From: Nitrospiria bacterium
GTDB lineage: Bacteria; Nitrospirota; UBA9217
Assembly (NCBI GenBank): GCA_919902495.1
Contig: CAKKRC010000067.1
Coordinates: 1 to 63,874 of the forward strand
Direction of reading: 5' to 3'
DNA: 63,874 nucleotides
A program made the position numbers and the translations under genes. A model generated the notes under the pieces. It saw only the letters and a list, made by a program, of their open reading frames with translations. It searched no databases and had not been told where the DNA came from. Below are positions 2,663-63,874 of this stretch, in pieces. Every line of letters starts with the position of its first letter. The first letter of the stretch is position 1.

Positions 2663-2917
2663 GAAAATTGTCCGCTACGCGGAACGCTCTGAGAACGGCA
2701 ATGAGCGATATTGTTCGATAAAATTGCATCGGACCGGCATTCGGTCTGTTCCTCCGCGTTGGTCAGGAAACTATTGTTATTGATGAACACGATACCCCAT
2801 ACTGTCATCTGTGATAAAACTTCGCGCGCATCTTAATTGGATATGGAGCCGCATACAGGCTCAGCAATAAAACATTTCGGCAAGATACTTGGTTATTCAT
2901 TACAGATGGAACCTGAT

Positions 2918-3871: not shown

Positions 3872-3900
3872 GTTCTGATCCAATTATCGTCAATGGCAAT

Positions 3901-4845: not shown

Positions 4846-4846
4846 T

Positions 4847-13810: not shown

Positions 13811-13968
13811 TCAGCTTCCCGATGGCTTCGTATTTGCGAGAACTGCCACTGACCGGATCATCTCTTCATGGAAGGAGTATTTTCTTGGGATCATACCTCG
13901 CTCGCATGTCGCTTCCTGTAAGCAGCGATGCGTAAAGTATGCACCGTCAAGAGTGCTGCGATTGGATC

Positions 13969-30021: not shown

Positions 30022-30094
30022 TGGGCTTCCTTCCAGTATTCTCTGAATAAAAACAAAGTAATATAGCATTAACCGGTGCCCCTGTAAACAAAAA

Positions 30095-32083: not shown

Positions 32084-34525
32084 ATGATGTTTGAGAAATT
32101 CACTGAGCGTGGAAGAAAAGTCATCGTCTATGCCCGCGAAGAGGCCGAGCGCCTCCAGAACGATTATCTCGGCACCGAGCATATCCTGCTCGGAACCCTC
32201 CGCGAGGAGGACGGGATTCCCGTTGCGGTGCTGCGCAAGATGGGCATCGATATCGATCAGGTGCGCATGGAAGTGGAAAGGAACCTTCCCTCCAGCGGCA
32301 ATACCCTTACATTCGGAGATATCCCTTTCACGCCGCGGGCCAAGAAAGTACTGGAATATGCCGTAGAAGAAGCCCGGCTTCTCGGGCATAACTATATCGG
32401 GAGCGAGCATCTGCTTCTCGGATTGATCCGCGAGGAAGAGGGTATTGGTGGAAAGATCCTCAGGAGCTTTGGAGTCAATCTCCTCGGTTCCCGGCAGCTG
32501 GTCATCAATTACCTCCGCCGCTCGGCAACCCAGGTCGCGGCGAAAAAAAGCCCTACCCCTGCCCTTGACGAATTCAGCAGGGACCTTACGCAGCTCGCCA
32601 AGGTCGGCAAGTTGGACCCGGTGATCGGACGCGATACGGAGATCGACCGCGTTCTGCAGATCCTCTCCCGGCGCACGAAGAACAATCCGGTCATCATCGG
32701 TGAGGCCGGCATCGGGAAAACGGCTATCGTCGAGGGCCTTGCCCAGCGTATCGTGAGCGCCGATGTACCCGAGAACGTGCTGAACCGGCGAGTGGTCTCC
32801 CTTGATCTCGGGGCGCTGATCGCAGGGACCAAGTATCGCGGTCAGTTCGAGGAGCGGCTCAAGATCGTGATGAAGGAGATCGTGCAGGCCGACAATATCA
32901 TCCTCTTTATCGACGAACTGCACACGCTGGTCGGTGCTGGCGCAGCTGAAGGGTCCATTGACGCATCAAGCATGCTGAAGCCGGCCCTTGCACGAGGCGA
33001 GATCCAATGCATCGGCGCTACGACGCTCGATGAATTCCGGAAGCATATTGAGAAGGATGGAGCCCTGAAGCGCAGGTTCCAGCCGATCTACGTTCAGCCT
33101 CCGAGCGTTGAAGAGACCATAAATATCATCAAAGGACTGCGTCCTAAGTATGAAGCGCATCACAAGATCAAGATCACCGATGAGGCTGTGGTTGCCTCCG
33201 CCCATCTCTCCGACCGGTACATCACCGACCGTTTCCTCCCCGACAAGGCCATCGACGTGATCGACGAGGCAGGCGCCAAGGCGAAGCTTACCCGCAATAC
33301 CTATCCTGCTGAGCTGAAGACCATCGAGAAAAAGCTGAAAAAACTCGAACAGGAGAAGAACCTTTTCACCCGGATCAAGGACTATGTACGGGTGGAGTCG
33401 CTCCATGAAGAGGAGGACCGCCTGAGGGAGTCCCTTGACGGCATCCACAAGGACTGGAAGGACTCACAGGAGAAGAACATCCCGGTCATCGGTGAAGAAG
33501 AGGTCGCATCGATCGTATCACATATTACGGGTATCCCGCTTGCGAAGCTTGAGGAAAAAGAGGTTTCCCGTCTGCTCAGGATGGAAGAGGAACTGCACAA
33601 GAGGATCGTGGGTCAGGACGAGGCCATTGTGGCCGTTTCTCGCGCTATCCGGCGCTCCCGGGTCGGCCTCAAACTTCGGAGACAGCCGATCGGGTCCTTC
33701 ATTTTTCTGGGGCCCACCGGCGTCGGGAAGACCGAACTTGCCCGCTCACTGGCATTGTTCCTCTTCGACAGTGAGGACGCGCTGGTCCGCGTGGACATGT
33801 CGGAGTACATGGAAAAGTTCAGTTCATCCCGCCTTGTTGGTTCACCGCCCGGCTATGTGGGGTATGATGAAGGCGGCCAATTGACGGAAAAGATCAGACG
33901 GAGGCCGTATTCCGTCGTGCTGTTCGATGAGATCGAAAAGGCCCATCCTGACATCTTTAACATGCTCCTGCAGGTGCTTGACGATGGTTATTTGACCGAC
34001 AGCGTCGGCAGGAAGGTCGACTTCAAGAATACCGTGATCATCATGACGTCCAACCTGGGTGCGCGAATGATCGACAAGGATACTACCCTCGGCTTCCGTC
34101 AGGACACTTCAAAGAGCCAGTATACCAAGATGAAGGATAACGTCCTCGCCGAGCTTAAACGTTCCTTCAATCCTGAATTCCTAAATCGGATCGATGATAG
34201 TGTCGTATTCCATCCGCTTTCGAACGTGCACTTGCTGCAGATCGTGGACATGCTGGTGAACGAGCTTAACCTTCAGATGCTGCAGAGCAGAAATATCCAT
34301 ATCGAGGTATCCCAGGAAGTGAAGGAGCGGTTGATCAGGGACAACTATCAACCCACCTACGGCGCTAGGCCGATGAGGCGTGCTATTCAGAGGCACATTA
34401 CCGACCCGCTTTCAGAAGAGATGCTCCGGGGCCGGTTCAAGGATGCACACAAGGTCCTCATCACCATCAAGGATGATCAGATCGAGTTCCAGGAGGAAGA
34501 AGCAGGAATTCTCGCGAAGGTATAG
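32084..34525 (+). CDS. clpC: ClpC-type AAA+ unfoldase
   Basis: The 813-residue protein has an N-terminal repeat domain (residues 1-145). The first AAA+ module has Walker A GEAGIGKT near 206-213, a short coiled middle domain sits near 410-460, and the second module has GPTGVGKT near 543-550. The short middle domain fits ClpC, not ClpB. It would unfold substrates for a ClpP peptidase, which is not in this window. It is the only plus-strand gene here and has its own promoter, so it forms a separate transcription unit that converges on the 34.6 kb genes. Confidence 0.93.
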
Positions 34526-47520: not shown

Positions 47521-50500
47521 TTAGTAGATCACCCTGATGATGTCCACTCCCTCGAATGGCGTCCCGGCGACCGTACCGGTGATATGGACCGGAACATGCC
47601 CGCCTGCCGGCAGGACTGCGATCACCTCGCTGCGCCTGAACTTGACCTTCAGCTCGCCATGTTCGTGCTCCCGATGATCGTCTCCGCAGCCGTGTTCATG
47701 GTGTTTTTTCTTCTTTTCATGAGGCCACATGACCACGGGAACTGTCCCCTCGAGCCTGATCGAGGATATATCGACATCGGAGGCTTTATACCCGTGCGGC
47801 AGTTCGATCTCGACCATGACCCAGTTGCCTTTGCTCTTCTGGTTCAGGGTCTCGGGCTCGACCTCGATGTCGACCTTGATGCCCGACTGCTGCAGATGGA
47901 CCGTGAAGCTGGTCATGGACGTCCAGGGGCCTTCACGCTGACCGTCATTGGCCCGGCAACGCCAGGAGTAAACTGTATTATCGGTGAGCCCAACGTTCAA
48001 TGTCGCCGAGGTGCTTCCGTCCGTCCCTTCTGCGACGCCGGGTGCGGACCAGATCAGCGCTGACCCGTAGAACACCTCGAAGTCATAGGTAAGCCGGGTG
48101 CTGTCGGGATCGAAGGCATTCAGGACCGTGAGCGTAGGCATGGCGCTGTCGACGCTGCCACCCTCCGCCGGGGAGACGATCATCGGCGCATCCGGGGGTT
48201 CGTCGCCGGTGTTGACGGTGAAGGAAAGCGTTGTTGTCCATCCGCTCGCAAGCTCACCGTCAAATGCCCGCGCCCGCCAGTAATAGGTCCTGTTCTCCTG
48301 AAGGGTCGCTGAGACCGTCCAGGACGTCGATCCCTGCATTTCAACGACTCCGGCAACCGATGCCACTGCAGGCGTTGCCATGCCGGGGTCCTCGTACACC
48401 TCGAAATCGTAGGTCAAGGCATCACGATCGAGGTCCGTGGCGTTCTGCACGGACAGGGTGGGCGTAAAGACGTTCACGCCCGCTCCGTTCGACGGATTTG
48501 CAGGAACCGGCGTGGATGGAGCGTCATTCACGGTGTTCACAAAGAACGCGATCACGCCCGACCAATTGCTTTCCGCGGCGCCGTCGTTCGACCTGGCGCG
48601 AACGAAGTAAGCCGTGTTGTCGAGAAGCCCGTCAACGTGCCACAATGTCGTCACCGATCCCTGCGGGATCGTGCTCGCCCGGAGTAAGTTCGTCGAATCG
48701 AAGGTCTTCACGGTGTCCAGCTCGATAGTGTACGTGATGACCGGAGAATCCGGATCATTGCTGTTCTGCAGAACGATGTCTGGAGCTGTTGTCGACACCT
48801 CTGATTTGTCAGTGGGAGCGTTTATCGACGGGACCGATGGTTCATTGTTCCCGGTGTTCACGATGAACTCTGCCGGGCTTGACCAGTTTCCAATGACCGT
48901 CCAGTCGTCGGCCTGAGCGCGCCAGTAGTACCGGACGTCCTCTGCCAACTGCACCGGCACCTGCCAGGACGTATTGCCCTCTCCCCCGATCACCCCCCCG
49001 GTGGCAGTGACGATCGTGACGAACGCCGGGTCCAGGGCGACCTGGAAGTTATAGGTGAGTGATGTGCTGTCGGGATCGACGGCATTGATGACCGTCAGAA
49101 CAGGTGTTGTCGTTGCCACCTCGGTCTTGTCCGCCGGGCTGGTAGGCGTCGGGACTGACGGCGGGTCCTCGACGGCGTTGACCCGGAATGACGCCGTATC
49201 GGTCCATGGTCCGTACAGATTGCCATCAAAGGCCTGGGCGCGCCAATAGTAGACGGCGTTCTCGGTCAGATCCGCGGGAACGGTCCATGCTGTCGTGCCG
49301 GTCCCTTCGGGGACGACCCCCGGGGGAGCGATCATGATGGTCAGGTCGCTGTCCGCATAAAGTTCGAATACATAGCTCAGACTGTCGCCGTTCGGATCAG
49401 AAGCATTGTTCACCGCGATCTCGGGCCGGATCGTTCGGACGTCCTGACCCGTGGCGGGCCATGCGGGCGCAGGCGCTGTCGGCGCCCGGTTGATGCGCAC
49501 CTCGTAGGAGATCGGCATCTCGCCGCTGCTGTTCCCTGCACGGTCAACGGCCCGGAAACTCACCGTATGCATGCCGTTGTCGGCCATGGTCGGGTCCCAG
49601 GTGGTCCCGAACCTGCCCCGCGACGGATCGGAGACCGGCAGAAGGCTCCACGAGCCGCCATCGCGGCTGTACTCGATCCGGTCCACACCCGATGCATCAT
49701 CGGAGGCCGCGACCATATACGACACGGTCGAGGTATATGGTGTTTCCGCCGCCGGCGACAGAATGGTCATCGTCGGTGCCGCCATATCTTTGATGATGAT
49801 GGCCGTACTTGCGAGGATGCTCGTGTTCCCGCTATTCACATATTGCAGGACCGCCGTGTACGTCTTGAGACTGTTCGACAGTCCCGAGAAGTCAGCCTGA
49901 CCGGTGATAGAACTGTTTGACGACAATGCTGACTGGATCTCAAAGGAGCCCAGAACGGTCTGTGACTCCGGATCGAGGATCAGGACCCGCGCCGTACCCG
50001 CGCCAGTATCCGCGTTTCCGCTGTTTTCGAGCGAATAGGCGGCCCGGAATGCCGAGCCGAAGGGCACGGGATCCGGCGATACGGAAAGTGTGCCCGTTAC
50101 AACGGCCGATCCGCGGATCGCGAAGTTCGCGGATTTGACCGGAAGCGCGTTCCCGTCGACTATCGTTTCCAGAACTGCTGTGTACGTGCCGGCAGGAGCA
50201 ATACCGGGTGTCCAGATCGAGGACAAGACGATCGATGCCCCGGGGAGCATATCGGTCGTGCTCTTCTCATTACTGAACAACACTGCCCCCGCCTCGTTCG
50301 TGATCGTCAGCCGCGTCGTAAGCAACGGTATGATCCTGTTTCTGCCGAGGCTGCTCAGGGTGACGGCAACACCCACCGGCTCGCCCGCGCCGTAATTCGC
50401 TTTATCGGTCGTCACGGCCGTGCCGACATTCGTGTCCGGAACGATTGTGAAGGCCGCAATTTGCTCTGCTAGCATTCCGGCTGCATTGTTCAGGACCGCA

Positions 50501-53500
50501 TGAACGCGATAGGCCCCCGCGTAGGTCGCGCCGGTGCTCCAGGTGAATGTCTTATCCTGCCGGGATGCATAGGACACGGAGATCGCTTTCTCTCCCAGAA
50601 GAGAGACTTCCGCGCCGCTCTCATCCTCGACCCTGACCGAAAGGACACCCTCCTTCGTAATTCCGCTGTTCCATATCGTGACGCGCGCCTTCACAACGGA
50701 ATCGCTTGCGTACTGGGTCGCATCGAGCGACGTTGCCAGCGAGATCCCCTCCTGGCCCGAGACGAAGAAGTCCAGCATGGCCATATTGTTCGTTTCGTTC
50801 GACTCCTGGACCAGTTGTTCGGTGTCCACTGCCGCGACGATCCGGTTCGCGCCGGTCCTGCCCGTGCTGTCCCACTCCGCACTGACGATATGCGCCGCGC
50901 CCGGTTCGAGCGCAGGCGCCTTACCCTGCACGAGCAGATCGAGGTGCCCGCTCTCGTTCCAGACATAGACGGATACATCGGCCTCGGTCGTAGCGGATTG
51001 TCCCTTGTTCCGGATCGCGACGCTCATGACCGCACGCTCGCCGGCAATTGGCGCCGCGGGATAGAGGGCGATGTCATCGGTCATGACAACAAGATCGGGC
51101 TGCTGACTGATGTCCCGTGTCACCGATATAGCGTCCGATGGGGCGCTGATGTTGCCTGACGCATCCCGTGCCACTGCCGTGAAGATGTTCTCACCGGGAT
51201 CGAGCGCGATAGCACTGAACAAGAACTGCCCTCCTGCAGAAACGACTTTCAGCACGGACTGCATCGTATCTGCGTTCGACTCGACATACGACACCTGTCC
51301 GTCCCCGGTCACCCCAAGGTAAACGACATTTGCCAGTCCTTCCTCGACCAGTCCCGGCACCGAGGACCCATCGGCTGCAATGGTCTTGACCGAGCTCAGC
51401 CCGGATACATTGTCCCATTCCGAATAGGCGATCCTCTGTCCGTCAGGGAACCATGCCGTCCAGTACAGGTCCCCAGCGGATTCGGCCAGCAGTGTCTTGC
51501 TGCCGCTGTTGGGAACAACGACATACAACGCATATACGCTGCCCAGCGTTTCGATCAACGCAATCCTGTTGCCGTCCGGCGACCAGCTAAGCGACCAGCC
51601 ATCCGTAGCCGGACCGATACTGGATTCCTGTCCTGTGGAAAGATCAAGAACGAATAGGCCGCCGTTCTGGAAATAGGCCAGTCGTCCCCCGTCAGGCGAT
51701 AGCGCGTGTTCATAGATCGAGTCCTTCACGACAGCCGGTGTCAGTTCGCCGCTGGTAAGATCCTTGAGCCAGATCGCATAGCCATGCACATCCGGTCCGT
51801 AGCTGTATCCCATGAACGTAAACCTGTTTCCGTCTGCGGACCACGAGAACGGGGCATAGATGTTGGCAGGCAATTCCCCGGTCAAGGGAGTGTCGCTATT
51901 CGTCGCTACATCGTGAATGACGATCTGCGGCGGATACGTTGCATCAGATTCATAGACGATCTTGCTTCCATCAGGGGACCAGGAGGGACCATATCCCTGC
52001 GGCGTCAGCTCCGCGACGATCGATGCGGCAAGATCGAGAAGCTGGATCTGCCCGCTATCGGAGGCATAGGCCATCAGGGAGCCGTCCGGAGAGAGCGATG
52101 CGCCATTGACATACGTAGCGATCGGGATCGAGAGCGGGCCGCTGCCGCCCGTCGCCTGGACCGTACCCATCGACGTACCATTCCTGAATAGCTCGACCGT
52201 CGTGCCCGATCCCGCTTTTCCGGCCACAGTAACGGTCGGCATGGTGACCACGATCGGCGAGCCCGACATAGTCGGAGTCGTGATCAGCGGCTTCTCCGGC
52301 GCCGTTGTATCAACAGCTGTTGCCGATCCCCACATCGAGTAGTCGCTCTCGTTTCCGAAGGAATCGACTGCTGTGGACACATAGTAGTATGTGGTTCCGT
52401 TCACAAGCCCTCGGTCACGGTATGCTGTTGCGGCGACGAGAGCAGATGTTATACGGGTGTAAGGGCCGCCTTCGGCTGCGCCCCGGTAGAGATAATAACC
52501 CGTTGCGGTTCCCTCCGGGTATGCCCACGTTATGTCCGCCTCGCCGTTCGGTTGTGCGGTTGCAACGAGATTCACCGGTGCAGAGAGCAGGTTCACAGCG
52601 ACGGTAGCGGTTACCCCGGTAGACAGCGCGCTTTCACTGAGCGCATCCACAGCGGTCACCTTGTACTGATAAGAACCATTCCGAAGTCCTGCATCGGTCC
52701 AGGTGATATCTGCTATAGCGCTCGAAGTGATCTTGCTCCATTCAGCGCCCGTTTTCCGATAGACAAGATAGCCTGTGACATCCGGTTCAGCGTTTTGGTT
52801 CCAGGTCAGCGTAACTGTTGAACCTTGGACCGAAGGAAGAAGTCCCGTCGGGGCATCTGGCAACGCGTCAAAGTCGATCGAGACGAAATTCGATTCATTG
52901 CTGACGTTGCCTGCGCTGTCAGTTGCCGTGGCCTTAATCGTATTGACTCCCGCGCTTAGCGTGATATCAGCCGAGAACCGTCCAGACTGGTCCGCAGTAG
53001 TCATAATCGATCCCGTGCCGGCTGAGGACAGGGTCTCAAAACGGATCGAAGCAAGCGCTGCCGCATTGGAGCCTGCAACAGGTACCGTGGCCAGCGTTGT
53101 CCGCGTCGCCAATTGGTCGATCACCGGAGAATAGACGCGCGCCGTGACCGGAGCCGACGGATTGCTTTCGTTACCAGCGGCATCTTTTGCGGTGATGTCA
53201 TAGGAATACAACCCGTCAGAATACACGGCATCCTGATAGGCCGCTGTCTGTTTCACGATCGCCGGATAGGTGATGCGTTCCCTTGTGCCTCCCGCGGTTC
53301 GATAGACATTGTATTCCGTCGTATCACCATCAGCGGCAGCTATCCAGGTGAGCGTAACGTAATTGCCGCTCACTGTAGCGGACAGACCTGCAGGCACGGG
53401 CGGCGGCGTCAGATCCTTGTATGTGACCGTTATCACCGGAGAAACACCCAGATTGGCCAGCGGCACATGCTTGTCAACAGCCTCTGCCTTCAGATCGTAG

Positions 53501-56500
53501 GTCGTATCAAGAGCGGCAGGTGTAAAGGCGGCCTCATAAGGAGCCTGTCTCGATACTCCGAAGGAGTACCAGGTATTCGATCCTGACACGGAATAATAGA
53601 ACGTCACATGATCAATATCGAGGTCCGGCGATTCCGCCCGGACAAGCGTCTTGCCGCCGATATTCGCATGGCCGGTCTGATCGACGACGGGCGCGACAAT
53701 CGCTATTTGCGGCGCTCTTGTGTCGATCGTGGCAACCACTGGCGTCTGGCTCAAGTTCATGTTGCCCGCCTGGTCCACGGCTGCGACCACATAGGTGAAC
53801 GTCCCATCCGGCAAATCGTAGTGGTAATAGGTTGGGCAGGGGATCAGGTAGGGCGTCATGTCCGCCTGCGTCATACTTGACGGAGCATTGACAAGACGAT
53901 CGTTTACAAAGAGCAGGTACCCCGCCAGGTAAGCGTCCGGGCTCTCGCTCCACTGGAGCGTCACGCTTGCTCCGTCGACAACAGGAAGCGCGAGAACAGG
54001 GGCCCGCGGCGGTGTATTGTCAATGGTGATGGCGATGTTATCAGTCGTGATGTTCCCGGCAAGGTCCTCGGCTTCGAGCCGCAGGGAGAACGTCTGTCCC
54101 TCGGCATGGCCGAGCGTATCCAGGTCCGCGAGCACGCCATTGGATACCGCCAGGGGCGACGTGCGGATCACGGTCCACGCAGCAGGAGCAATCCCCTGCC
54201 CGATCGATATGCGGTATTGTTTGAAGTCGTCTGCGCTGAAGGCCGTCCCCTTGATCTCGATGAATCCACTGATCTTCGATCCGGAGAACGGCCTTGCGAT
54301 CTTCGCCGCCGGTCCGGTCAGGTCGATCCTGACCTTGACCGCGTTGGACGGTCCGCTTTCGTTGCCGGCAAGATCGAGTGCCCTGACCGTGTAGACGTAG
54401 CTTCCCTCACCGAGACCCGCATCGATGAATTCGCCCGCGGTGACGGTGGGCCCGGCATTCAGTTTCTGTCCGCCGCGGTAGACATTGAATCCGGCCAGAT
54501 CCGACTCCGTATTGCCGCTCCATGTCAGCCTGACATCGGCAGCGTTTTGCCTGGTCCCGTCGAGAACCGGCGGCGCGGGCGGGGTCGTGTCAACCTTCAG
54601 GCCGATCACTGCAAAAGCTGCATTGCCTGTCTTGTCAGTTGCCGTAACCCGGAGACAATAGTCACCGTCTACGGTCGCACCCGGCCACTGTGCGAGAACG
54701 CCGTCCTGCACGGTGGACGCCCCCGTCCTTATCGCGGCCCACTTGTAGGCCGCGGAGCACATACCTTCGGACATCTCGACCACAAAGCGGTCGAGATTGG
54801 CGTCCGAAGCCGTTCCCCGGATATCGGCGCCGGTCCTGACGGTGCCTCCCTCCTGCGGTGCGGTGATGGCAACCGCAGGCGGCGTATTGTCGATCGTGAC
54901 CCTGACCCTGGCTTCACCTGCCAGGCCGGCCTTGTCCTTGGCAGCAAGCGACAACGTGTACGATCCGTCCGGAATACCGTCGTGCTTGCCGATTTTCCAT
55001 GCAAACGATGAAGGATAAGCAGTTACGGTCGTACCGCTGACCAGATCGGTCCACAGCGCCGGGCTGTCGCCCGATCCGTACCGCAGCGAGAAGCTTTCGA
55101 GGTTCTTCTCCACCAGGCTTCCGGAAATAGCGATGATGTTCTTCTCACCGCCGAAATACCCTCCATCCTTCGGCGTTTCCAGTTTCACCGACGGAGGCGT
55201 CCGGTCGATCGTGAACGGCATGTTCATGATGGTCTCGTTCTCGCCGAGGTCCTTTGCCTTGACCTCAAGCCGATAGTCACCCTCGGGGATCGCGTCCACG
55301 GTGCCGAAGACATGTCCGGTGCGCGACTGGTTCCCTCCGTCGATAGGCAAACGGCCAGCTGCGCCGGTGTAGCTCAGCGCATACTCGGCAAGGTTCTCAT
55401 CGCTCACCGTGCCGGTTACCGGCAGAGCAGTTACGGACAGATAGGACGCATCCTTCGGTGAGGTGATATTCACCACCGGATAAATCGTATCTATTTTGAA
55501 TGGAAGCACTTCGGTCTGGACGACCGATGGGTCGGTCAGCAGTGCTGCTGTCAGTCTGGCCTTGTACTCCCCATCGGGAAGCTTTCCATTCGCGCTGTCC
55601 GTCCCGTCATAGACCAAACTGAAGCTGCCGGCGGCAGACGCGCTCGACATAACGCTTTTTCTCACAACATTTCCGGCGTCGAGCATCGCTATTTCGACCT
55701 GCGCTCCCTGCGCCAGTTCATAGTCGATCTTCGTCGTCTCCGCCCGGTAGTTCCCGTTCGGCGAGATCACGTCAGGAGACAACGCGAGACGCCCGAAGAG
55801 CGTCGTGTCGTTGCCGACGGTGACCATTGAGGTCACGGTCGATTCATTGCCGACGGTATCGGTCGCCGTGAGCTGCAGGACCCACGGTCCGTTCTCCAGG
55901 CCGAAGGTGTACCATTTTCCGAGAACGCCGGTATCCTTGACCGCCTGCGTTCCCTGCGAAACAAGAGACAGTCCTGTGCCGTCTTCCTTCAAGGCTTCAA
56001 GCTTAAACTGCTGGAAATGGTCGTCCCTGGCGATTCCCGTGACATGCACGATCTTACCGACTGCTCCCGGCCCGGGCGAGGAGATTGAGAGCACCGGCGG
56101 AGTGTTGTCGACCTCCACTTCCACCTGGCCCACCGCCGTGTTGCCGCAGGAATTAGTCGCCTGGACAATGATGCCGTAGCGGCCGTCCATAACCGGCGCG
56201 TTCCCATCGTTCAATCCGTTCCACAAGACGGTCCTCGTCCCTCCTGTGTACTGTTCGTTCGCGATAAGGGTCCTGATCACCGGCGGGACGGGATAATAGC
56301 GATGGTTTATTGGGTCCTTCTCGACCCTGAACACCGATACATCGACCCTGGCGGACTCGCTGACCGAATACGTCGCTGTCACGGCGTTCACGTTTCCCGT
56401 GGAGGAGATGATCGTTCTGTCGCCCTGCGCGTTCACTGTGGTGGCGGACGGCAGCGCACGGGCGCTCGTCACCGAGCAGGATTTGTTTCCGGTGTTGCTG

Positions 56501-59500
56501 ATCGCCTCAAGACGGATCGTCAGGTCCTGGCCTGATTCGTAAACGTTAACGAGACCGAGTTGAGATTCAGACTCACTTGCGCTGCCCCGGATCGCCGGGT
56601 CATCATCGCTTCCTTCGCTGCCGGATGCATTCACGAGACCAAGAGCCGGGACCCATACGCCGCTCGGGTTTGCCGGATCGAGTCCCTGCATCATCGTCAG
56701 TTTATACGTACCTGTTCCGTCATAGCGTTCCACCGGTATATTTCTCACGTCTCGGGCTATACCGTTCACCTGCAGATAGGACCGTGTTCCTGATTTTCGC
56801 GGCACCCGCAGGGGGCAAATTGACGCTGCGGGAGCGGGAGATGTCAGGACGGACTCCGGCAGCGCCCGGTCCACGAGCAGTTCTCCCCTTGCCCATGCGG
56901 TCTTCAGCATATTATTGGCAATGTCGCGGTACTGAAGACGCGCGACGATCGGATGCCGTCCCTCTGCCAGGTCGGCGTTAGCGATTTCGAAGCTCGTACC
57001 GTGGTTTTCCAGCCAGACCTTCAATATCTCCCGGGGATCGTCGATCCGCCTGAGCAGGCGCAGCCCTTCGGAATCATCCAGATAGTAGCTCAGGTCGATC
57101 ACCGCGTTCTTCTTAAGTTTTTCAAGGACAGCCAGATACCGAGGAGAATTCTTCCGGCGCGCTTCCTCCATCATATCGTTCGTGTTGATCTCTGCCGATA
57201 TGATGGACGCCTTGTCAGAGGCTGTTCCGCATTCTTGTGCTTCTGCGTATGTAACGTTAAGCGGTATCGAGAGATCACAGGGGTTCCCGGGATAGTTGAT
57301 AACCACGGCATACTCACGCCCGCTCGCGCCGATGCCCGTCATCCGGATCTCGTATTTTTTTCCGGGTTCGACAGCGAAGGTCGGCAGCGGAGGCTCAAAA
57401 TACCCTTTGGGCATGCGATCGCCCTTGCTCGCATCATACGTTTTATAGCGGTCCGCGTCGGTCCAGGGTAATTTCGGATCGTTCGGGCGTTCGCGCGCGT
57501 CCAGGGACAGCATCACGAGCGGCTCGAACAAGGCGATCTCACCGACCAGCGGCGCCTTGGCATTGCAGGACTCGGAGAGCTTGAACAGCTCGTGATAGAG
57601 CACATTGGAAAAATGGGTCCTGTCAAGCGAATCCACGGCTTTCAGCCTGACCGCGTAGGCTTGATAGGGTTTGAACGAGGAGTTGTCCCATTGGGCGAAC
57701 CACATCGTGGATGGTTCGGGTACAACTGCATCATCGGTCCAGATATTGCCGTTGTTTTGCAGCACGTCAAAGGACAGGGTGTACTGGACGTTCATGGAAA
57801 CCAGACGCGAATCGATCGTCTGGAATCCGGCGATGCTGTGGATGCCGGGCTGCGCCTTGTCCGTGGGAATACGCACGGCATCGCTGCCGGCTGTCGCCTG
57901 TATATCCATACCGTCAACGTAATCCCATGCGTCGGCGATAAGGCGCTCCGGCAGCACCTGGCTCGACGCTACCCGCTTGTTCCCCGCCCTGTCCTCGACG
58001 GTTATGCGGAGCTTTCTGCCGATGAACGTCTTTATCCGTTCGATGTCCTGGTAGTTGAAACCGAAGCTGAAACCATCTCTTCCATCTTTGGCGACCTCTG
58101 TGCCTCCATCAAGTGATTCCCACTGCTGCGGGTTATCGCCTTTCCCGATATCAAGTTTCCAGCCGCTCAGATTTGCGTCCTGTGCCTCGTACGATGCGAC
58201 CAAACGCCACTTCTTGACTATTTCTCCCATCACTTTTAAAGGGTTTTCCACAAAATCCAATGAAAGGTTCACCGTGGCTTCCGGCGATGTATTATCCACC
58301 TCGACCGGGAACTCAAGGTCCAGGACCTTGATGATGTACTTGCCGTCGGGCACGATGACGTCCTGTTCGTTCCTGCCATCCCAGGACATCATGCCTGTCC
58401 CCGTCTCAGGATGGGACATGACAATGGTCTTTATCAGCTCGTTGTCAACGGTAAATACCTGGAACTCCAGATTGACCGGCTCCAGGACCTGGTAGGAAAG
58501 ATCCACCGTACCCACCATCTCGTTGAAGGGCGAGAAGATCGGCGTGCTCTGGCGAATATTGGAGATGCTCGTCGCCGCGGCCCAGGAGATCCGTTTCGTG
58601 GATTGTGCGGTGTTCCCCGCCTTGTCCCATGCTGTCAGGCGGACGTAATAGGCGCCCCTGACCGGGGGAATCCAGGTCGTGAAGACCTCATTGAGCACCT
58701 CCCGGTCGGCCGGCGGCAGGACGGGGGTCCAGGCCTGAGGCGTCTTCGCATCGGCATATTCGAGCCGGTAGCCCTCGAAGTTCAGGTCTCCGGCGATGCC
58801 GCGCAGGATGATGCCGGTCTTGCGCTTCACGGCGCGGAGGTCCGCCGTCAGGTTCAGAGCGGAACTCAAAGCCCACAGCTCCGTCTCCGAGTATGCCCAT
58901 GGCTCGACCTGGCCCCATCTCCAGCATGGGTTCGTGTCGTCGATTTGCTGCGAATAAGTAAGGTAGCGCTCCTGGGGAGACATCGTGGTCTGCTGATACG
59001 GGATATACGCGCCCGGGGCCAGGGGCGCGGAACCGGTCTGTCCTGTCGAAAGCTGCAGAGACTCTATCCCTGATCCAGTCCCGAGCAGGTAGCCGCCCCG
59101 CTGCGGCCAGGCCACCGGTGTCATCGGCGTTGCGTACGATTGTTCTACCTTAGAAGCGGCATTGATGACGATGACCCGCGGACCGACCGTGTCCTGGCAC
59201 TGGTTCGTGCAATCTCCGCACGTGGCAAGCTCTTCGGAAAACGCCAGCGAACCGCCGTCCGCTGACCAGACCACATCGCTTATCCGGGGACTGCAGTACG
59301 GTCCTCCCTGGCGCACCGTATGGGTCGAGATATTTCCATTCTCATCAGTTATGAATAACCTGCCTTCATCATATTCTTCCGTGAACGAAAAGAACTGCCC
59401 GCCCGGGGAAAGCGATATGCGATGGCGGTATGAGGTGTCGGTTCCCGCTATAAGAGAAGAACCGCCGTCAGGCGTCACCAGCCATATACCCCGGACCGAT

Positions 59501-62500
59501 CCGTATCCCCAGACAGACACGATGAGCTTGCCGGAATTGAGCCAGGCAACGGAATCGGTAAAGGTATATTCCGCCTCCCGGATATCCGGGAACACCTGCC
59601 GCGGCGGCCCGATGAGATCGGTTGTTTTGATGCTTTCAATATAATACCAGCCTTCATACCTGCCTGCCGCATAAGCAAGTCGGGCGCCGTCGGGCGACCA
59701 GGCTATATAGTTACCATCATACCAACCGCCCGTTTCGATCACGTTGACGCCGCTTACTGCGGGTCCCGCGATCCGCAGCGTTTCCGCATATCCCCCTGAG
59801 GTCCGGTAGACCAGGGCATTTCCAGCAGGCGACCATTTTACGTCGAAGATACTTCCGGAGGCGTTGTACCCTTCGGGAACTATCGTATCTATCTTGTTCA
59901 GGTTCGACCCATCTCGATGAACCGTCCATAGCTCTGCCGTCTGAATATTCCTCTGCTTGTCGGAAATATGAAGGATGAACGCGATCTTTTCACCGTCCGG
60001 CGAAAGGTCAAATCCGAAATAGGAATACGCATATCTTCCATCCCCCTGTTTGTTCCAGTCCCACGGCACCAGCCGGGTGATCTCGACGCCGTCCGGCGAG
60101 ATGGTGTAGATGCCGTTCGGATACGACTGCGTCTGAGGCAGCTGTGCTACGATGCCGCTTTCGTCGGGCAGCCAGCGCCAGTCTTCCAGCGCAGGAAGCT
60201 GGCAGGTCAGCGTCGTGTTCAGCAAGTATTTTGTCCCGAATGCTTCCGGCAGCGGCAGCCGGTTCGTGTCGACAGTCACCGGACTTTCGCTCATGGTAAC
60301 GCCCGACGCATCCTTCAGCCGGAACCGGTATTCCCCGTCGTCGACGATCATTTCATCGTTATCCAAACCGTCCCACCGGACAGACCCCGCCCCGATGTTC
60401 TGCGGACCAAACCCGCTGAAGGTCCGGACGGTCTCGCCCCTCTTGTTCATCACCACGACCGTCACGGATTGCGGGGACGGCAGCCGGAAAAACAGCTCCG
60501 TGGCGTCCTTCACACCGTCGCCGTTCGGCGAGAAGTACCGCTCCGTCACAAAGAGGTCCGCGTCCTGGACCCCGAAAGACCGCGCTGCCCGGTTGTTCTC
60601 CTTGTTTCGTTCAGTAATGCTGTTCAGCGGGTCCACCACTACCGTTATTTCGTGGGCGCCCTTGCTGACCGTTGTTCCGTAGGAGAAACCGACCGTAGCC
60701 GTGGTATGGCCGGAAAGCATCGTGATCGTCTGATCGGGACCGATCGGCGATCCCCCGTCCATAGCCCGCACGATGACATTCGCCGCTTCCTGGTCGCCGC
60801 TGTTCTGGACGGTCACGGAGATCGTCACCGGGTCGCCCTCCTTGGGGAAAGCGGGCTGGATAACAACGGCATTGGTTGAGATCATCAGCTCCGGCAGGCT
60901 CTTGACCGAGACGGTCGTGAACGCTTCGTTGTCATCCGTGCGGATCTCGCTCGTCCCGCCGGGCGGAGAGGCCCTGACCGTGATGATAGTATTGCCCGGG
61001 TCGGGAATGTTGTTCCAGGTCAGGGAGACCACCGCGTTCTGGCCCGGTTCCAGGGGAGGAATGGTCATGGCCGCTGGAGCGTCCAACGGCAGCTGGCGCA
61101 TCGTTCCCGAGACCGTTGAGTAGAATGTCGCCACCACACCGGATACGGCCGATCCGCCGTCGTTCCGCACGATAGCCGAGATCACTGCGCTGCCGCCCTC
61201 AAGCAGTGTTGGCGGCGTAACCACAAGGTCCTTGTAGGAGATCGATATGTTGGGTTCCGTAAGGGAGTTGATGGTCACCAGAGTGGACGCGCTGTTGTTC
61301 GTTTCCGACAGTTCATCTTTATAATAATTGTCCGGATCGACCTGGACGGTGACCGGCATGTTCACACCTGCACGGTTCGCTCGCCAATTCACCGATTTCA
61401 TGACACTGCCGTTGGCAGGGACATCGACCGTAACTTCAGCAATGGTCACAGCTCCGCCCGGCGCCGTGACGAAGAATTTGACCGGAACGCTGTAGGCCGT
61501 CATGGTGCCTTTGTTGCCGATCTTGGCGGTTATGGTCACATCCTGGAGCAGCGACGCGGTCGCCGGGCTCACCGATACGTCGCCGGGCAGGACCTCGAGA
61601 TCATAGGTTGTTTGCACCTGGAGGGACCTGCCTGCCCGGTTGTTGTTCTCGTTCGATTCCTTCGCGATATCAAGTGAGGTGACAACGGCGATGAAGGTAT
61701 GTTCGTTCCCGTCGCTGATCGTGGTGGAGAATGTCACTGCAGCCGGTGACTGGCCGGGGACCGCCACAACGACCGGCTGGCCGATCCGGTTCGCCTCGGC
61801 GACCGCTCCGTCGTAGAGAACGATCTGCGCCTGCCTGACTTCAGTCATGCCGGTGTTCGAGACCGAGACATTGATCACGACGCTTGCCGGCAGGGCCGAT
61901 ATCCTGTCGGGCGTGAAGGTGATGTCGCTTGACCGCACGACCAGGTCCGGATCGATATTCCCTTTAAGGATCGCCTGCACCGCCAGCGCCGTCTCGAAGA
62001 CGCTGCTGTTCCAGCTCCCGTTCTGGTCCTGTCGGGCCTTGAGGAAATCCACCGCTGGGTTGGTGATGTTTGTCGCTGCGTCCAGCTCCCGCAGGACAAG
62101 GACCGCCAGGGCCGTATCATAGACCGTTGCCTCCTGCCCGGCATCCGTCGCATGACCAAATGCGCCGTTCACCTGTTTCGAGAGCAGCCATCCCGTTCCG
62201 CGGCTGATGGCGTCCCCCATCGGGTACGAGGTCCGATACCGGTTGAGCGCCGAAAGTGCGGCTGTTGTCGCCTGGACCGTGCTCTCACCGTTCCCGGTCC
62301 AGCCGCCGACGGACTTCTGTGCCGATAGAAGATACTGAATGGCATTGCTGATCGCCTGCTGTTCGCCTGCCCCGGCAAGGGAAAGCGCCTTCAGCGCCAG
62401 CGCGGTATCCGCCGCGTTGCTGGAATAGGTCCGTCCGCTCCCCCAGCCGCCGTCGCTGTTCCGGCGTTCCAGCAGCTCCCGGACAAGTTCTGTCGTGTCC

Positions 62501-63840
62501 GCTCCCGCCGCCACGAAGGCTTCGATCTTTCTGCACAGGTAATCGACGTTCAGCGATTGGCTGATGCCGAGCCAGAGCATGCCGGACTGCACGTTCGTCT
62601 GACCTGCGGGGAACGGCTTGAGCGTCAGCACGGCCTCTGCTGTATCGCGCTCCATCGTCTGGGCAAGGTCCATCCAACTCCCGTCGGTGCTCTGCTTCCC
62701 GATAAGCCAGGTAACTCCTTCGTCGATATTCGCCATCGGCCGGAGCGTCGTGCTCGGCGGCAGGACGCCGGGATTGACCTGCACGTCCTCTTTCGGAGTT
62801 GACGCGACTTCCATGATGCTCCTGCCGTCGGTCAGGACCGAGAACCGTGTTACCGCTCCGTTCCGGATGTTCTCGATGCCGTAGATCTCCTGACCTGTGA
62901 ACGTTCCGGGACGAGTAAGGAAGATGAAGGCGGTTTTGAAGGACTTTTGCGACGCTGCAGCGGACGGAACGCGCTCGCCCATGGCCGCGATGATATCGTC
63001 GATCGTGACGGTCCTTGCCTGTCCGCTGATCGTTACATTCGCCTCCGGCAAGCGCGCCGGATCGATCGCGTTGTTCTCGATGAGAAGCATGGGCGGGACC
63101 TGCGACTTATCCAGCATGCCCATGAGGTAGAGGTCGAGGGGGCTGTAGTATTTCAGTTCGGTCTGGGGTGCGACTGAGGTGAATGTGCCGTTGCCGTTGT
63201 TCTGCCATTTATTGCCGTACATGAGCGAGCCGCCGGAGTCGAGCAGGAAGCTCCAATGGCTGCTTTCCCTGCCGAGGAGCGCCGAGCTTTCAGAGCCGGA
63301 AGCATCCTTGAACTTTGCATAGGCTGACCAGCGGTGCATTATCTCATGCGACATGATGTACAGCGTCTCATTGAACTTCGGGTCCATCGGATCGGTCACC
63401 AGCAGTGCGATATTGCCCATGTCGATGGTTCCCTGAAGTCTGCCCGAAACGTTAGAGTCGTTGTAGAGGCCGGAATTGTCAAAGAGCAGCATACCGATGC
63501 CGCTGACATCGTTTCTGACACCGTGGTAAAAGGCCCGAGCATCCGTCGGCATCTGGTAATTGAAATTGGAGAAAATAAACAGGAAATCATACTCGTCTTT
63601 ATGTGTACGATAGAATTCCTTCGCAACTGCCTGGCGAGCGGCATCGTTATCCGAGCCGTCGGCGTTCCGCGCGTCGTAGTTTCCCGTAACGTCCATGACC
63701 GTGACGTTGCCGTAGTCGCCGAGGGTGGAAGCGGTGAAGTCGGCCGACCAGGAGAGTGCGGGTGCAAGCAGTATGATAAGAGCGGTCAGGATCGTTCGGC
63801 CGAGTGCGCGGTTCGGAGTTCTCAGTTCTCGGTTAATCAT
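47521..63840 (-). CDS. Giant secreted multidomain protein with HExxH domain, alpha-toroid, CARDB and beta-propellers
   Basis: One frame of 5439 codons has no interruption. A signal peptide (residues 1-33, cut after WSA) is followed by an N-terminal domain with HEIMH (165-169) and ESSHWSFLLDSGGSLMYG, a putative zinc metalloprotease. Five QW-type repeats (about 370-627, for example DGSW, DGGW, VGGW, NGSW) suggest a terpene-cyclase-like alpha/alpha-toroid. Four CARDB-like modules (631-1095), a SPNGDG/FlgD-like Ig module (about 1100-1185) and beta-propeller 1 with SPDG repeats (about 1190-1640) come next. A long chain of Ig, FlgD-like and Fn3 modules (1640-3900), propeller 2 (about 3900-4205), more CARDB (about 4247-4680), an Ig module, five tandem about 107-residue repeats (4784-5310) and a terminal domain with a His-rich segment (about 5374-5396) complete it. 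AGAGGT lies about 8 bases before the ATG. No LPXTG, PEP-CTERM or C-terminal anchor is recognised. Function is unknown; a surface or released protein for binding or cleaving polymers is plausible. It ends 116 bases before rimP. Confidence 0.85.
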   Translation of the reverse strand: MINRELRTPNRALGRTILTALIILLAPALSWSADFTASTLGDYGNVTVMDVTGNYDARNADGSDNDAARQAVAKEFYRTHKDEYDFLFIFSNFNYQMPTDARAFYHGVRNDVSGIGMLLFDNSGLYNDSNVSGRLQGTIDMGNIALLVTDPMDPKFNETLYIMSHEIMHRWSAYAKFKDASGSESSALLGRESSHWSFLLDSGGSLMYGNKWQNNGNGTFTSVAPQTELKYYSPLDLYLMGMLDKSQVPPMLLIENNAIDPARLPEANVTISGQARTVTIDDIIAAMGERVPSAAASQKSFKTAFIFLTRPGTFTGQEIYGIENIRNGAVTRFSVLTDGRSIMEVASTPKEDVQVNPGVLPPSTTLRPMANIDEGVTWLIGKQSTDGSWMDLAQTMERDTAEAVLTLKPFPAGQTNVQSGMLWLGISQSLNVDYLCRKIEAFVAAGADTTELVRELLERRNSDGGWGSGRTYSSNAADTALALKALSLAGAGEQQAISNAIQYLLSAQKSVGGWTGNGESTVQATTAALSALNRYRTSYPMGDAISRGTGWLLSKQVNGAFGHATDAGQEATVYDTALAVLVLRELDAATNITNPAVDFLKARQDQNGSWNSSVFETALAVQAILKGNIDPDLVVRSSDITFTPDRISALPASVVINVSVSNTGMTEVRQAQIVLYDGAVAEANRIGQPVVVAVPGQSPAAVTFSTTISDGNEHTFIAVVTSLDIAKESNENNNRAGRSLQVQTTYDLEVLPGDVSVSPATASLLQDVTITAKIGNKGTMTAYSVPVKFFVTAPGGAVTIAEVTVDVPANGSVMKSVNWRANRAGVNMPVTVQVDPDNYYKDELSETNNSASTLVTINSLTEPNISISYKDLVVTPPTLLEGGSAVISAIVRNDGGSAVSGVVATFYSTVSGTMRQLPLDAPAAMTIPPLEPGQNAVVSLTWNNIPDPGNTIITVRASPPGGTSEIRTDDNEAFTTVSVKSLPELMISTNAVVIQPAFPKEGDPVTISVTVQNSGDQEAANVIVRAMDGGSPIGPDQTITMLSGHTTATVGFSYGTTVSKGAHEITVVVDPLNSITERNKENNRAARSFGVQDADLFVTERYFSPNGDGVKDATELFFRLPSPQSVTVVVMNKRGETVRTFSGFGPQNIGAGSVRWDGLDNDEMIVDDGEYRFRLKDASGVTMSESPVTVDTNRLPLPEAFGTKYLLNTTLTCQLPALEDWRWLPDESGIVAQLPQTQSYPNGIYTISPDGVEITRLVPWDWNKQGDGRYAYSYFGFDLSPDGEKIAFILHISDKQRNIQTAELWTVHRDGSNLNKIDTIVPEGYNASGSIFDVKWSPAGNALVYRTSGGYAETLRIAGPAVSGVNVIETGGWYDGNYIAWSPDGARLAYAAGRYEGWYYIESIKTTDLIGPPRQVFPDIREAEYTFTDSVAWLNSGKLIVSVWGYGSVRGIWLVTPDGGSSLIAGTDTSYRHRISLSPGGQFFSFTEEYDEGRLFITDENGNISTHTVRQGGPYCSPRISDVVWSADGGSLAFSEELATCGDCTNQCQDTVGPRVIVINAASKVEQSYATPMTPVAWPQRGGYLLGTGSGIESLQLSTGQTGSAPLAPGAYIPYQQTTMSPQERYLTYSQQIDDTNPCWRWGQVEPWAYSETELWALSSALNLTADLRAVKRKTGIILRGIAGDLNFEGYRLEYADAKTPQAWTPVLPPADREVLNEVFTTWIPPVRGAYYVRLTAWDKAGNTAQSTKRISWAAATSISNIRQSTPIFSPFNEMVGTVDLSYQVLEPVNLEFQVFTVDNELIKTIVMSHPETGTGMMSWDGRNEQDVIVPDGKYIIKVLDLEFPVEVDNTSPEATVNLSLDFVENPLKVMGEIVKKWRLVASYEAQDANLSGWKLDIGKGDNPQQWESLDGGTEVAKDGRDGFSFGFNYQDIERIKTFIGRKLRITVEDRAGNKRVASSQVLPERLIADAWDYVDGMDIQATAGSDAVRIPTDKAQPGIHSIAGFQTIDSRLVSMNVQYTLSFDVLQNNGNIWTDDAVVPEPSTMWFAQWDNSSFKPYQAYAVRLKAVDSLDRTHFSNVLYHELFKLSESCNAKAPLVGEIALFEPLVMLSLDARERPNDPKLPWTDADRYKTYDASKGDRMPKGYFEPPLPTFAVEPGKKYEIRMTGIGASGREYAVVINYPGNPCDLSIPLNVTYAEAQECGTASDKASIISAEINTNDMMEEARRKNSPRYLAVLEKLKKNAVIDLSYYLDDSEGLRLLRRIDDPREILKVWLENHGTSFEIANADLAEGRHPIVARLQYRDIANNMLKTAWARGELLVDRALPESVLTSPAPAASICPLRVPRKSGTRSYLQVNGIARDVRNIPVERYDGTGTYKLTMMQGLDPANPSGVWVPALGLVNASGSEGSDDDPAIRGSASESESQLGLVNVYESGQDLTIRLEAISNTGNKSCSVTSARALPSATTVNAQGDRTIISSTGNVNAVTATYSVSESARVDVSVFRVEKDPINHRYYPVPPVIRTLIANEQYTGGTRTVLWNGLNDGNAPVMDGRYGIIVQATNSCGNTAVGQVEVEVDNTPPVLSISSPGPGAVGKIVHVTGIARDDHFQQFKLEALKEDGTGLSLVSQGTQAVKDTGVLGKWYTFGLENGPWVLQLTATDTVGNESTVTSMVTVGNDTTLFGRLALSPDVISPNGNYRAETTKIDYELAQGAQVEIAMLDAGNVVRKSVMSSASAAGSFSLVYDGTDSANGKLPDGEYKARLTAALLTDPSVVQTEVLPFKIDTIYPVVNITSPKDASYLSVTALPVTGTVSDENLAEYALSYTGAAGRLPIDGGNQSRTGHVFGTVDAIPEGDYRLEVKAKDLGENETIMNMPFTIDRTPPSVKLETPKDGGYFGGEKNIIAISGSLVEKNLESFSLRYGSGDSPALWTDLVSGTTVTAYPSSFAWKIGKHDGIPDGSYTLSLAAKDKAGLAGEARVRVTIDNTPPAVAITAPQEGGTVRTGADIRGTASDANLDRFVVEMSEGMCSAAYKWAAIRTGASTVQDGVLAQWPGATVDGDYCLRVTATDKTGNAAFAVIGLKVDTTPPAPPVLDGTRQNAADVRLTWSGNTESDLAGFNVYRGGQKLNAGPTVTAGEFIDAGLGEGSYVYTVRALDLAGNESGPSNAVKVRIDLTGPAAKIARPFSGSKISGFIEIKGTAFSADDFKQYRISIGQGIAPAAWTVIRTSPLAVSNGVLADLDTLGHAEGQTFSLRLEAEDLAGNITTDNIAITIDNTPPRAPVLALPVVDGASVTLQWSESPDAYLAGYLLFVNDRLVNAPSSMTQADMTPYLIPCPTYYHYDLPDGTFTYVVAAVDQAGNMNLSQTPVVATIDTRAPQIAIVAPVVDQTGHANIGGKTLVRAESPDLDIDHVTFYYSVSGSNTWYSFGVSRQAPYEAAFTPAALDTTYDLKAEAVDKHVPLANLGVSPVITVTYKDLTPPPVPAGLSATVSGNYVTLTWIAAADGDTTEYNVYRTAGGTRERITYPAIVKQTAAYQDAVYSDGLYSYDITAKDAAGNESNPSAPVTARVYSPVIDQLATRTTLATVPVAGSNAAALASIRFETLSSAGTGSIMTTADQSGRFSADITLSAGVNTIKATATDSAGNVSNESNFVSIDFDALPDAPTGLLPSVQGSTVTLTWNQNAEPDVTGYLVYRKTGAEWSKITSSAIADITWTDAGLRNGSYQYKVTAVDALSESALSTGVTATVAVNLLSAPVNLVATAQPNGEADITWAYPEGTATGYYLYRGAAEGGPYTRITSALVAATAYRDRGLVNGTTYYYVSTAVDSFGNESDYSMWGSATAVDTTAPEKPLITTPTMSGSPIVVTMPTVTVAGKAGSGTTVELFRNGTSMGTVQATGGSGPLSIPIATYVNGASLSPDGSLMAYASDSGQIQLLDLAASIVAELTPQGYGPSWSPDGSKIVYESDATYPPQIVIHDVATNSDTPLTGELPANIYAPFSWSADGNRFTFMGYSYGPDVHGYAIWLKDLTSGELTPAVVKDSIYEHALSPDGGRLAYFQNGGLFVLDLSTGQESSIGPATDGWSLSWSPDGNRIALIETLGSVYALYVVVPNSGSKTLLAESAGDLYWTAWFPDGQRIAYSEWDNVSGLSSVKTIAADGSSVPGLVEEGLANVVYLGVTGDGQVSYVESNADTMQSVLKVVSAGGQFLFSAIALDPGENIFTAVARDASGNISAPSDAISVTRDISQQPDLVVMTDDIALYPAAPIAGERAVMSVAIRNKGQSATTEADVSVYVWNESGHLDLLVQGKAPALEPGAAHIVSAEWDSTGRTGANRIVAAVDTEQLVQESNETNNMAMLDFFVSGQEGISLATSLDATQYASDSVVKARVTIWNSGITKEGVLSVRVEDESGAEVSLLGEKAISVSYASRQDKTFTWSTGATYAGAYRVHAVLNNAAGMLAEQIAAFTIVPDTNVGTAVTTDKANYGAGEPVGVAVTLSSLGRNRIIPLLTTRLTITNEAGAVLFSNEKSTTDMLPGASIVLSSIWTPGIAPAGTYTAVLETIVDGNALPVKSANFAIRGSAVVTGTLSVSPDPVPFGSAFRAAYSLENSGNADTGAGTARVLILDPESQTVLGSFEIQSALSSNSSITGQADFSGLSNSLKTYTAVLQYVNSGNTSILASTAIIIKDMAAPTMTILSPAAETPYTSTVSYMVAASDDASGVDRIEYSRDGGSWSLLPVSDPSRGRFGTTWDPTMADNGMHTVSFRAVDRAGNSSGEMPISYEVRINRAPTAPAPAWPATGQDVRTIRPEIAVNNASDPNGDSLSYVFELYADSDLTIMIAPPGVVPEGTGTTAWTVPADLTENAVYYWRAQAFDGNLYGPWTDTASFRVNAVEDPPSVPTPTSPADKTEVATTTPVLTVINAVDPDSTSLTYNFQVALDPAFVTIVTATGGVIGGEGNTSWQVPVQLAEDVRYYWRAQADDWTVIGNWSSPAEFIVNTGNNEPSVPSINAPTDKSEVSTTAPDIVLQNSNDPDSPVITYTIELDTVKTFDSTNLLRASTIPQGSVTTLWHVDGLLDNTAYFVRARSNDGAAESNWSGVIAFFVNTVNDAPSTPVPANPSNGAGVNVFTPTLSVQNATDLDRDALTYDFEVYEDPGMATPAVASVAGVVEMQGSTSWTVSATLQENRTYYWRARAFDGELASGWTTTLSFTVNTGDEPPDAPMIVSPAEGGSVDSAMPTLTVLNAFDPDSTRLTYDFEVFYGSALIWSAPGVAEGTDGSTSATLNVGLTDNTVYSWRCRANDGQREGPWTSMTSFTVHLQQSGIKVDIEVEPETLNQKSKGNWVMVEIELPHGYKASDVDISSIRLEGTVPVVMWPHEKKKKHHEHGCGDDHREHEHGELKVKFRRSEVIAVLPAGGHVPVHITGTVAGTPFEGVDIIRVIY
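47900..49500 (-). repeat. Five tandem Fn3-like repeats inside the giant gene
   Basis: Five consecutive units of about 320-330 bases encode modules of about 107 residues. Each opens with a PxxPxP-type segment, contains an N/D-x-D-P/L-D-x-x-x-L-x-Y-x-F/I core such as DPDSTSLTYNF, and ends with Y-x-W/V-R-x-x-A/S...W. Units start near 49500, 49180, 48845, 48515 and 48195. Confidence 0.75.
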
Positions 63841-63874
63841 GCTTTAAACCTCTGTGCAGGGTCGGTTTTATGCG

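What the first reader, a model, noticed from the sequence alone, without database searches (positions are those of the whole stretch)
47521..63840. A single 16.3 kb gene encodes a 5439-residue secreted protein of unprecedented mosaic
The sequence shows one uninterrupted frame with a signal peptide, an HExxH domain, an alpha/alpha-toroid, CARDB modules, two SPDG-type beta-propellers, FlgD-like, Ig and Fn3 modules and a His-rich tail. CARDB, Fn3 and propeller domains each occur in bacterial surface proteins (established). The combination and length are, as far as I can tell, not a named family. A whole-chain role as a secreted polymer-binding or degrading machine is inference.
Basis: partly seen in the sequence, partly recalled or inferred. 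Interest (0 to 1): 0.82.

Follow-up and report, generated by a model that had tools for sequence, protein, structure and literature searches.

The report
Giant partner of polymorphic surface effectors
The 5,439-residue protein is real and belongs to an unnamed family of giant exported proteins, conserved almost end to end in several bacterial phyla and usually encoded beside a swappable-payload effector protein, so it is probably a fixed delivery or processing part of an unrecognised bacterial weapon-like system.

Summary
The ORF at 47521-63840(-) is one intact frame with its own ribosome site and an in-frame stop just upstream. It is not an assembly chimera: homologues from Nitrospirota, Desulfobacterota, Geobacterales/Myxococcota-labelled MAGs and Tahibacter align along residues 1-4784 (full-length copies 5,382-6,979 aa); only the last ~650 residues vary. 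The N-terminal HExxH domain is invariant in 42 sequences, models confidently (pLDDT 93.7) and matches no Pfam family and no PDB or viral fold. New here: in 13 genomes of the first set, in loci found later, and in one fetched as a test, the gene sits beside a secreted protein with an inactive transglutaminase domain (Cys replaced by Asp in 13/13), Ig domains and an exchangeable C-terminal payload (RHS toxin, esterase/phospholipase, phosphodiesterase, NTF2-like), each non-RHS type with its own following gene. The two co-occur far beyond chance in two samples (p about 1e-13 and 1e-8). A shorter sister clade carries the same HExxH domain in cis with one of these payloads. Best reading: the giant is the constant, exported scaffold/processing peptidase of a polymorphic-effector system. 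Linkage is shown; mechanism is inferred. In this genome the contig ends 34 nt upstream, so local linkage cannot be seen; two such effector genes lie on other contigs.

The parts
47521..63840 (-). giant ORF, 5439 aa
   Evidence: collinear with about 20 homologues
63844..63853 (-). in-frame TAA (63844-63846) and AGAGG ribosome-binding site (63849-63853) just upstream of the ATG
   Evidence: sequence
63742..63840 (-). probable Sec signal peptide (aa 1-33)
   Evidence: by eye: basic N-region, hydrophobic LTALIILLAPALSWSA; no signal-peptide predictor run
62806..63750 (-). N-terminal HExxH domain (aa 31-345), putative metallopeptidase; H165, E166, H169, H195 invariant, D201 >90% (full-protein numbering; numbers are 30 lower)
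   Evidence: pLDDT 93.7; no known family or fold
61966..62748 (-). alpha/alpha-toroid (aa ~365-625), squalene-cyclase/TED-like repeats
   Evidence: Pfam; PDB sequence matches
60571..61968 (-). four CARDB modules (aa ~625-1090)
   Evidence: Pfam (3.9e-39, 4 stretches)
60271..60543 (-). FlgD-like Ig domain (aa ~1100-1190)
58921..60243 (-). probable beta-propeller 1 (aa ~1200-1640), weak TolB/PD40 matches; holds the lowest-identity part of the core
52231..58923 (-). array of Ig-like (Big, FlgD_ig, Glucodextran_B) and fn3-like modules (aa ~1640-3870)
51271..52203 (-). beta-propeller 2 (aa ~3880-4190), PD40/TolB-like
50782..51102 (-). fifth CARDB module (aa 4247-4353)
47524..49488 (-). variable C-terminal region (aa ~4785-5439): fn3/Ig repeats and a last Ig-like domain
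   Evidence: homologues share mostly 10-23% here against 25-67% over most of the core in non-Tahibacter homologues
47650..47721 (-). His/Lys-rich loop (aa 5374-5397) within the last Ig-like domain

Best explanation
The giant is the constant, exported component of a two-gene (or longer) polymorphic-effector system. It leaves the cytoplasm by a signal peptide (Sec, probably followed by a secretin-type route) and forms a long adhesive stalk of CARDB/Ig/fn3/propeller modules. Its partner, encoded next door in most relatives, is a secreted effector with a catalytically dead transglutaminase-like domain, Ig domains and an exchangeable C-terminal payload. The dead transglutaminase domain, proposed earlier only to bind peptides at the surface, would bind the giant, and the giant's N-terminal HExxH domain would cut or mature the effector (or its target) in trans. 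In the short sister form the same domain sits in cis, upstream of the payload in the same chain, as processing peptidases do in classical polymorphic toxins. Shown: the intact gene, the conserved core, the invariant HExxH, gene linkage and co-occurrence, the dead triad, and the pairing of payload type with the following gene. Inferred: physical binding, proteolysis, export route, and antagonism of other cells as the purpose.
For: Conserved core aa 1-4784 in about 20 homologues. Partner adjacent or a few genes away in G010, G061, G065-G070, G073, both copies in T. soli (G076), G077, G079, L026, with further partner fragments beside the giant in G007, L017 and L057, and intact neighbours in G134, G151, G248. 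A new locus (G372) fetched afterwards has giant, partner and c7-like gene in that order with overlapping ends. Co-occurrence: Nitrospirota sample, 12 of 20 giant-domain genomes have the partner with its own N-terminal region against 2 of 226 others (p=1.4e-13); class of a Desulfobulbaceae genome, 5 of 5 against 1 of 140 (p=1.2e-8). Partner: Transglut_core with Asp at the Cys position in 13 of 13, as in the 'inactive transglutaminase' toxins of PMC3482391. Payload type predicts the following gene: alpha/beta hydrolase with c7 (5 loci), phosphodiesterase with the 294/319-aa family (2 loci), NTF2-like with c3+c6. Tandem orphan cassettes in G179 and G255, RHS fragments in T. soli. Short form in which HExxH domain, Ig domains and payload are fused; short and long forms are one clade each at 100/99.
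Against: No direct evidence of binding or proteolysis. The HExxH domain has no detectable structural relative, so even 'peptidase' rests on the invariant motif. In the window's own genome the contig ends upstream of the gene and the two partners lie on other contigs. G004 and G080 show no partner in their flanks, and several giant-domain genomes in the sample lack it altogether, although most of those carry the short form. The non-RHS payloads with an assignable family look like lipid or phosphoester hydrolases, which could be nutritional. The immunity role of the following genes is untested.
Confidence: 0.5

Rival explanations
1. The giant is a stand-alone adhesin or polymer-binding/degrading surface machine; the neighbouring effector is only a frequent co-resident of surface-gene islands.
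For: CARDB, fn3, Ig and propeller modules are typical of bacterial adhesins (family knowledge); some homologues lie without a partner nearby (G004, G080).
Against: Linkage and co-occurrence with one specific effector family in distant lineages; no carbohydrate-active catalytic family detected.
Confidence: 0.25
2. The giant is an envelope or extracellular structural protein (sheath, appendage or S-layer-like) whose operon also carries surface enzymes for lipid and phosphate scavenging; payload variety reflects nutrition, not conflict.
For: Alpha/beta hydrolase, phosphodiesterase and Zn-PLC-like payloads or neighbours could feed the cell.
Against: RHS tips, tandem orphan cassettes and payload-matched neighbour genes are marks of conflict systems.
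Confidence: 0.15
3. The HExxH domain is not catalytic, and the giant is a passive scaffold or tether for the effector only.
For: No similarity to any known peptidase fold.
Against: His, Glu, His and a further His are invariant in 42 sequences down to about 41% identity, which is unusual for a site without a function.
Confidence: 0.25
4. Assembly or frame artefact joining several genes.
For: Two homologues are split (G009, G064), so the locus can break.
Against: Intact single ORFs of 5.4-7.0 kaa in many genomes, including isolates.
Confidence: 0.01

Closest known systems
Inactive-transglutaminase polymorphic toxins (Zhang et al. 2012, PMC3482391)
   Same: The partner has a signal peptide, dead TG domain, Ig domains, often RHS repeats, and a variable C-terminal tip; that paper suggests the TG domain anchors the toxin at the surface.
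   Different: No giant companion is mentioned in the passages I read; many partners here carry non-RHS payloads; the giant itself has no TG domain.
PVC-metallopeptidase and other pre-toxin processing peptidases (PMC3482391)
   Same: An HExxH domain upstream of an exchangeable payload (short form here).
   Different: PVC-MP signature is HExxHxxQ..E; here HExxHR..A with a downstream HWS; no Pfam match; in the giant it would act in trans.
Teneurin-like bacterial YD proteins and Tc toxin TcB/TcC (PMC6425310)
   Same: Ig/CARDB modules, a beta-propeller and YD/RHS shells in one system.
   Different: There the modules are one chain; here propellers and CARDB are in the giant and RHS, when present, in the neighbour; no shared fold was tested.
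Giant1-5 surface proteins of Apilactobacillus kunkeei (PMC12863079)
   Same: Extracellular proteins of 3,000-8,000 aa in clustered genes.
   Different: Lactic acid bacteria; beta-solenoid domain at the N-terminal end; no HExxH domain or polymorphic effector partner in the abstract I read.

Membership tests
Polymorphic toxin system (as a system) | Constant N-terminal region with exchangeable C-terminal payloads | tested here: met
   Partner: N-terminal ~550 aa alignable in 13, C-termini fall in several unrelated groups
Polymorphic toxin system (as a system) | Cognate immunity gene next to each payload type | tested here: inconclusive
   Payload-matched following genes found; immunity function not testable here
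Polymorphic toxin system (as a system) | Orphan payload cassettes in tandem | tested here: met
   G179, G255; T. soli RHS fragments
Inactive-transglutaminase toxins | TG domain with lost catalytic residue near the N-terminus of a secreted protein | tested here: met
   Partner only: Asp at the Cys position in 13/13; the giant itself is not a member
PVC-metallopeptidase | HExxHxxQ...E signature | tested here: not met
   HE[LI][ML]HR[WF].A, no Q at that place
Metzincin (HExxHxxGxxH) | Third ligand His 6 residues after the HExxH | tested here: not met
   Next invariant His is 26 residues after the second His
Zn metallopeptidase (general) | Zn binding and proteolysis | not testable with these tools
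   Only the invariant HExxH and a confident model
Type IX secretion cargo | C-terminal CHU_C/T9SS sorting domain | tested here: not met
   CHU_C hits are weak (0.0044, 17.5 of 27 bits) and lie on the FlgD-like domain, not at the C-terminus
Tc/teneurin-like toxin | RHS/YD repeats in the chain | tested here: not met
   No RHS family match in the giant

The most novel reading that the evidence does not exclude
A previously unrecognised delivery system in which a giant protein, with a core of about 4,800 residues conserved across phyla and a new family of HExxH peptidase, acts in trans to display and release exchangeable effectors docked through a dead transglutaminase domain.
Probability: 0.35. 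Interest if true: 0.88.

Novelty: new variant of a known kind. Interest (0 to 1): 0.7.

Why it matters
How Sec-exported inactive-transglutaminase toxins are held on or released from the cell surface was left as a guess when they were described in 2012 (PMC3482391). A constant giant gene beside them gives a concrete, testable answer, defines a new HExxH domain family without a recognised fold, and offers a marker for finding new effectors and their possible neutralising genes in little-cultured phyla such as Nitrospirota.

Tried and rejected
Assembly chimera (rejected by homologues). Single-sequence search of genome contigs with the N-terminal 800 aa found nothing; the six-sequence alignment then found 44 loci. 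First structure prediction with six sequences was poor (pLDDT 52.8); 42 sequences gave 93.7. PDB and viral fold searches empty. Known defence family: none. T9SS cargo: rejected. His-rich domain as a genome-wide sorting tag: rejected, single copy. The small upstream gene (c2) as a PilP/GspC homologue: only suggestive, below cut-offs. A link of contig C67 to C74 or C41 through shared end k-mers: none found in the parts fetched. Papers on giant proteins in Nitrospirota, Tahibacter RHS, CARDB mosaics: none naming this family.

Full report
OBSERVATION. The minus-strand frame 47521..63840 is uninterrupted, 5439 aa. Its start is fixed by an in-frame TAA 3 nt before the ATG codon's preceding codon (63844-63846) and an AGAGG ribosome site. 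The other five frames have no open run longer than 376 codons, and codon-position GC is similar along the gene. The window is a whole contig (C67) of a 3.67 Mb, 97% complete genome.

DOMAINS. Pfam confirms the toroid, four CARDB plus one more, FlgD-like Ig, many Ig/Big and fn3 modules and propeller 2; propeller 1 is only weakly detected. The N-terminal HExxH domain has no Pfam, NCBIfam or PDB sequence relative. With 42 homologues it models at pLDDT 93.7 / pTM 0.90, yet Foldseek finds nothing in the PDB or in viral structures (best E 1.8 and 1.4). Invariant residues include His165, Glu166, His169 and His195 (positions plus 30).

A FAMILY, NOT A ONE-OFF. An alignment query found 44 loci in Nitrospirota, Desulfobacterota, Geobacterales, Myxococcota-labelled MAGs and Tahibacter isolates. 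Intact ORFs of 5,382-6,979 aa occur in many of these genomes. A whole-length alignment shows the core aa 1-4784 covered in nearly all homologues (roughly 25-67% identity in most blocks; lower across propeller 1 and in Tahibacter), while the last ~650 aa are unrelated or nearly so. In a Nitrospirota sample 20 of 246 genomes carry the HExxH domain.

GENE CONTEXT. Next to the giant lies a second long secreted protein ('partner') with a Transglut_core domain, usually Big_1, and either RHS repeats or another C-terminus. It is adjacent or a few genes away in 13 genomes of the first set, in G134, G151 and G248, and in G372, which was fetched only to test the prediction. RHS or partner fragments precede the giant in G007, L017 and L057. 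Order is partner, accessory genes, then giant in several Nitrospirota and in G061, and giant then partner in Desulfobulbaceae and Tahibacter. c2 is a small secreted protein with weak PilP/GspC similarity upstream of the giant in about ten loci.

CO-OCCURRENCE. The partner with its own N-terminal region (E below 1e-100) occurs in 14 of 246 Nitrospirota genomes, 12 of them among the 20 with the giant's domain (p=1.4e-13). In a 145-genome sample of the class of a Desulfobulbaceae genome it occurs in 6 (E below 1e-200), including all 5 with the giant (p=1.2e-8). These p-values ignore shared ancestry, but the linkage recurs in Tahibacter, including both copies in T. soli, each with its own partner.

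THE PARTNER IS A POLYMORPHIC EFFECTOR. In 13 of 13 sequences the TG catalytic Cys is replaced by Asp (SGNDxDQA; position assigned by me from the family pattern), matching the 'inactive transglutaminase' toxins of PMC3482391, where such domains follow the signal peptide, precede RHS or sit beside Ig domains, and were proposed only to anchor the toxin by binding peptides. Payloads: RHS with Stv or Tle1-like tips, alpha/beta hydrolase, type I phosphodiesterase, and an NTF2-like-looking domain, the last recognised by eye and not by Pfam. Payload groups travel with their own following gene: hydrolase with c7 in five loci (and G372), phosphodiesterase with a 294/319-aa family in two, NTF2-like with c3 lipoprotein plus c6, a possible Zn-dependent phospholipase C (6.7e-4, below cut-off). 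The NTF2-like/c3/c6 cassette repeats as orphans in G179 and G255; T. soli has downstream RHS fragments separated by small genes.

CIS AND TRANS FORMS. A short sister form places the same HExxH domain before Ig domains and the NTF2-like payload, with the same c3 and c6 genes after it. Short and long forms are one clade each (100/99). The same HExxH domain therefore exists in cis with a payload and, in the giant, in trans beside payload carriers. This is the main reason for proposing a processing or release role.

THIS GENOME. The contig ends 34 nt before the gene, so the neighbour cannot be seen. Two partner genes lie elsewhere: C74 (2267 aa, phosphodiesterase payload, followed by its 319-aa gene and c2, without a giant after them) and C41 (frame-broken, NTF2-like payload, c3). 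Downstream of the giant, on the same strand, lie genes that look by eye like rimP, nusA and infB. Four secretins are present, so secretin-type export is possible; which route is used is unknown.

JUDGEMENT. Shown: intact gene, conserved core, new HExxH domain, linkage and co-occurrence, dead TG domain, pairing of payload with following gene. Inferred: docking, proteolysis, export route, antagonism. It works like a component of a polymorphic-toxin system; the giant itself is not a member of any tested family.

Noticed in passing
G000 C41 (L104:332-4194, minus strand): A second transglutaminase-type partner gene is split into two ORFs (428 and 843 aa) in different frames: frameshift, decay or assembly error.
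   Followed up: partly
L103:8616-9134: The only copy of the small PilP/GspC-like protein c2 in this genome stands beside an effector gene without a giant, whereas in relatives it precedes the giant: a possible rearrangement.
   Followed up: partly
L110:11380-19001 and L112:12909-18876: Tandem cassettes of an NTF2-like C-terminal domain, a c3 lipoprotein and a Zn-phospholipase-C-like secreted protein, repeated two to three times.
   Followed up: partly
L009:5910-8465 and homologues: c6, a ~520-860 aa secreted protein with conserved H..W..G..ED, NHFH, HL..D..P.H motifs; weak match to Zn_dep_PLPC only, so possibly an undescribed phospholipase family.
   Followed up: partly
T. soli contig region 140000-235000 (L087-L091): Two full giant/TG-RHS pairs about 50 kb apart, with RHS fragments and small genes between them.
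   Followed up: partly
L012 (G009:C107) 13950-14056 and L067:12209-12242: The homologous giant is broken into two frames; sequencing error, pseudogene or real split not resolved.
   Followed up: no
L042: A record labelled Candidatus Nanosynbacter carries a Geobacter-like short form; probably a misbinned contig.
   Followed up: no
window 27664-30069 and 32084-34525: By eye these look like a BamA-type outer-membrane protein and a ClpC-type ATPase; not tested.
   Followed up: no
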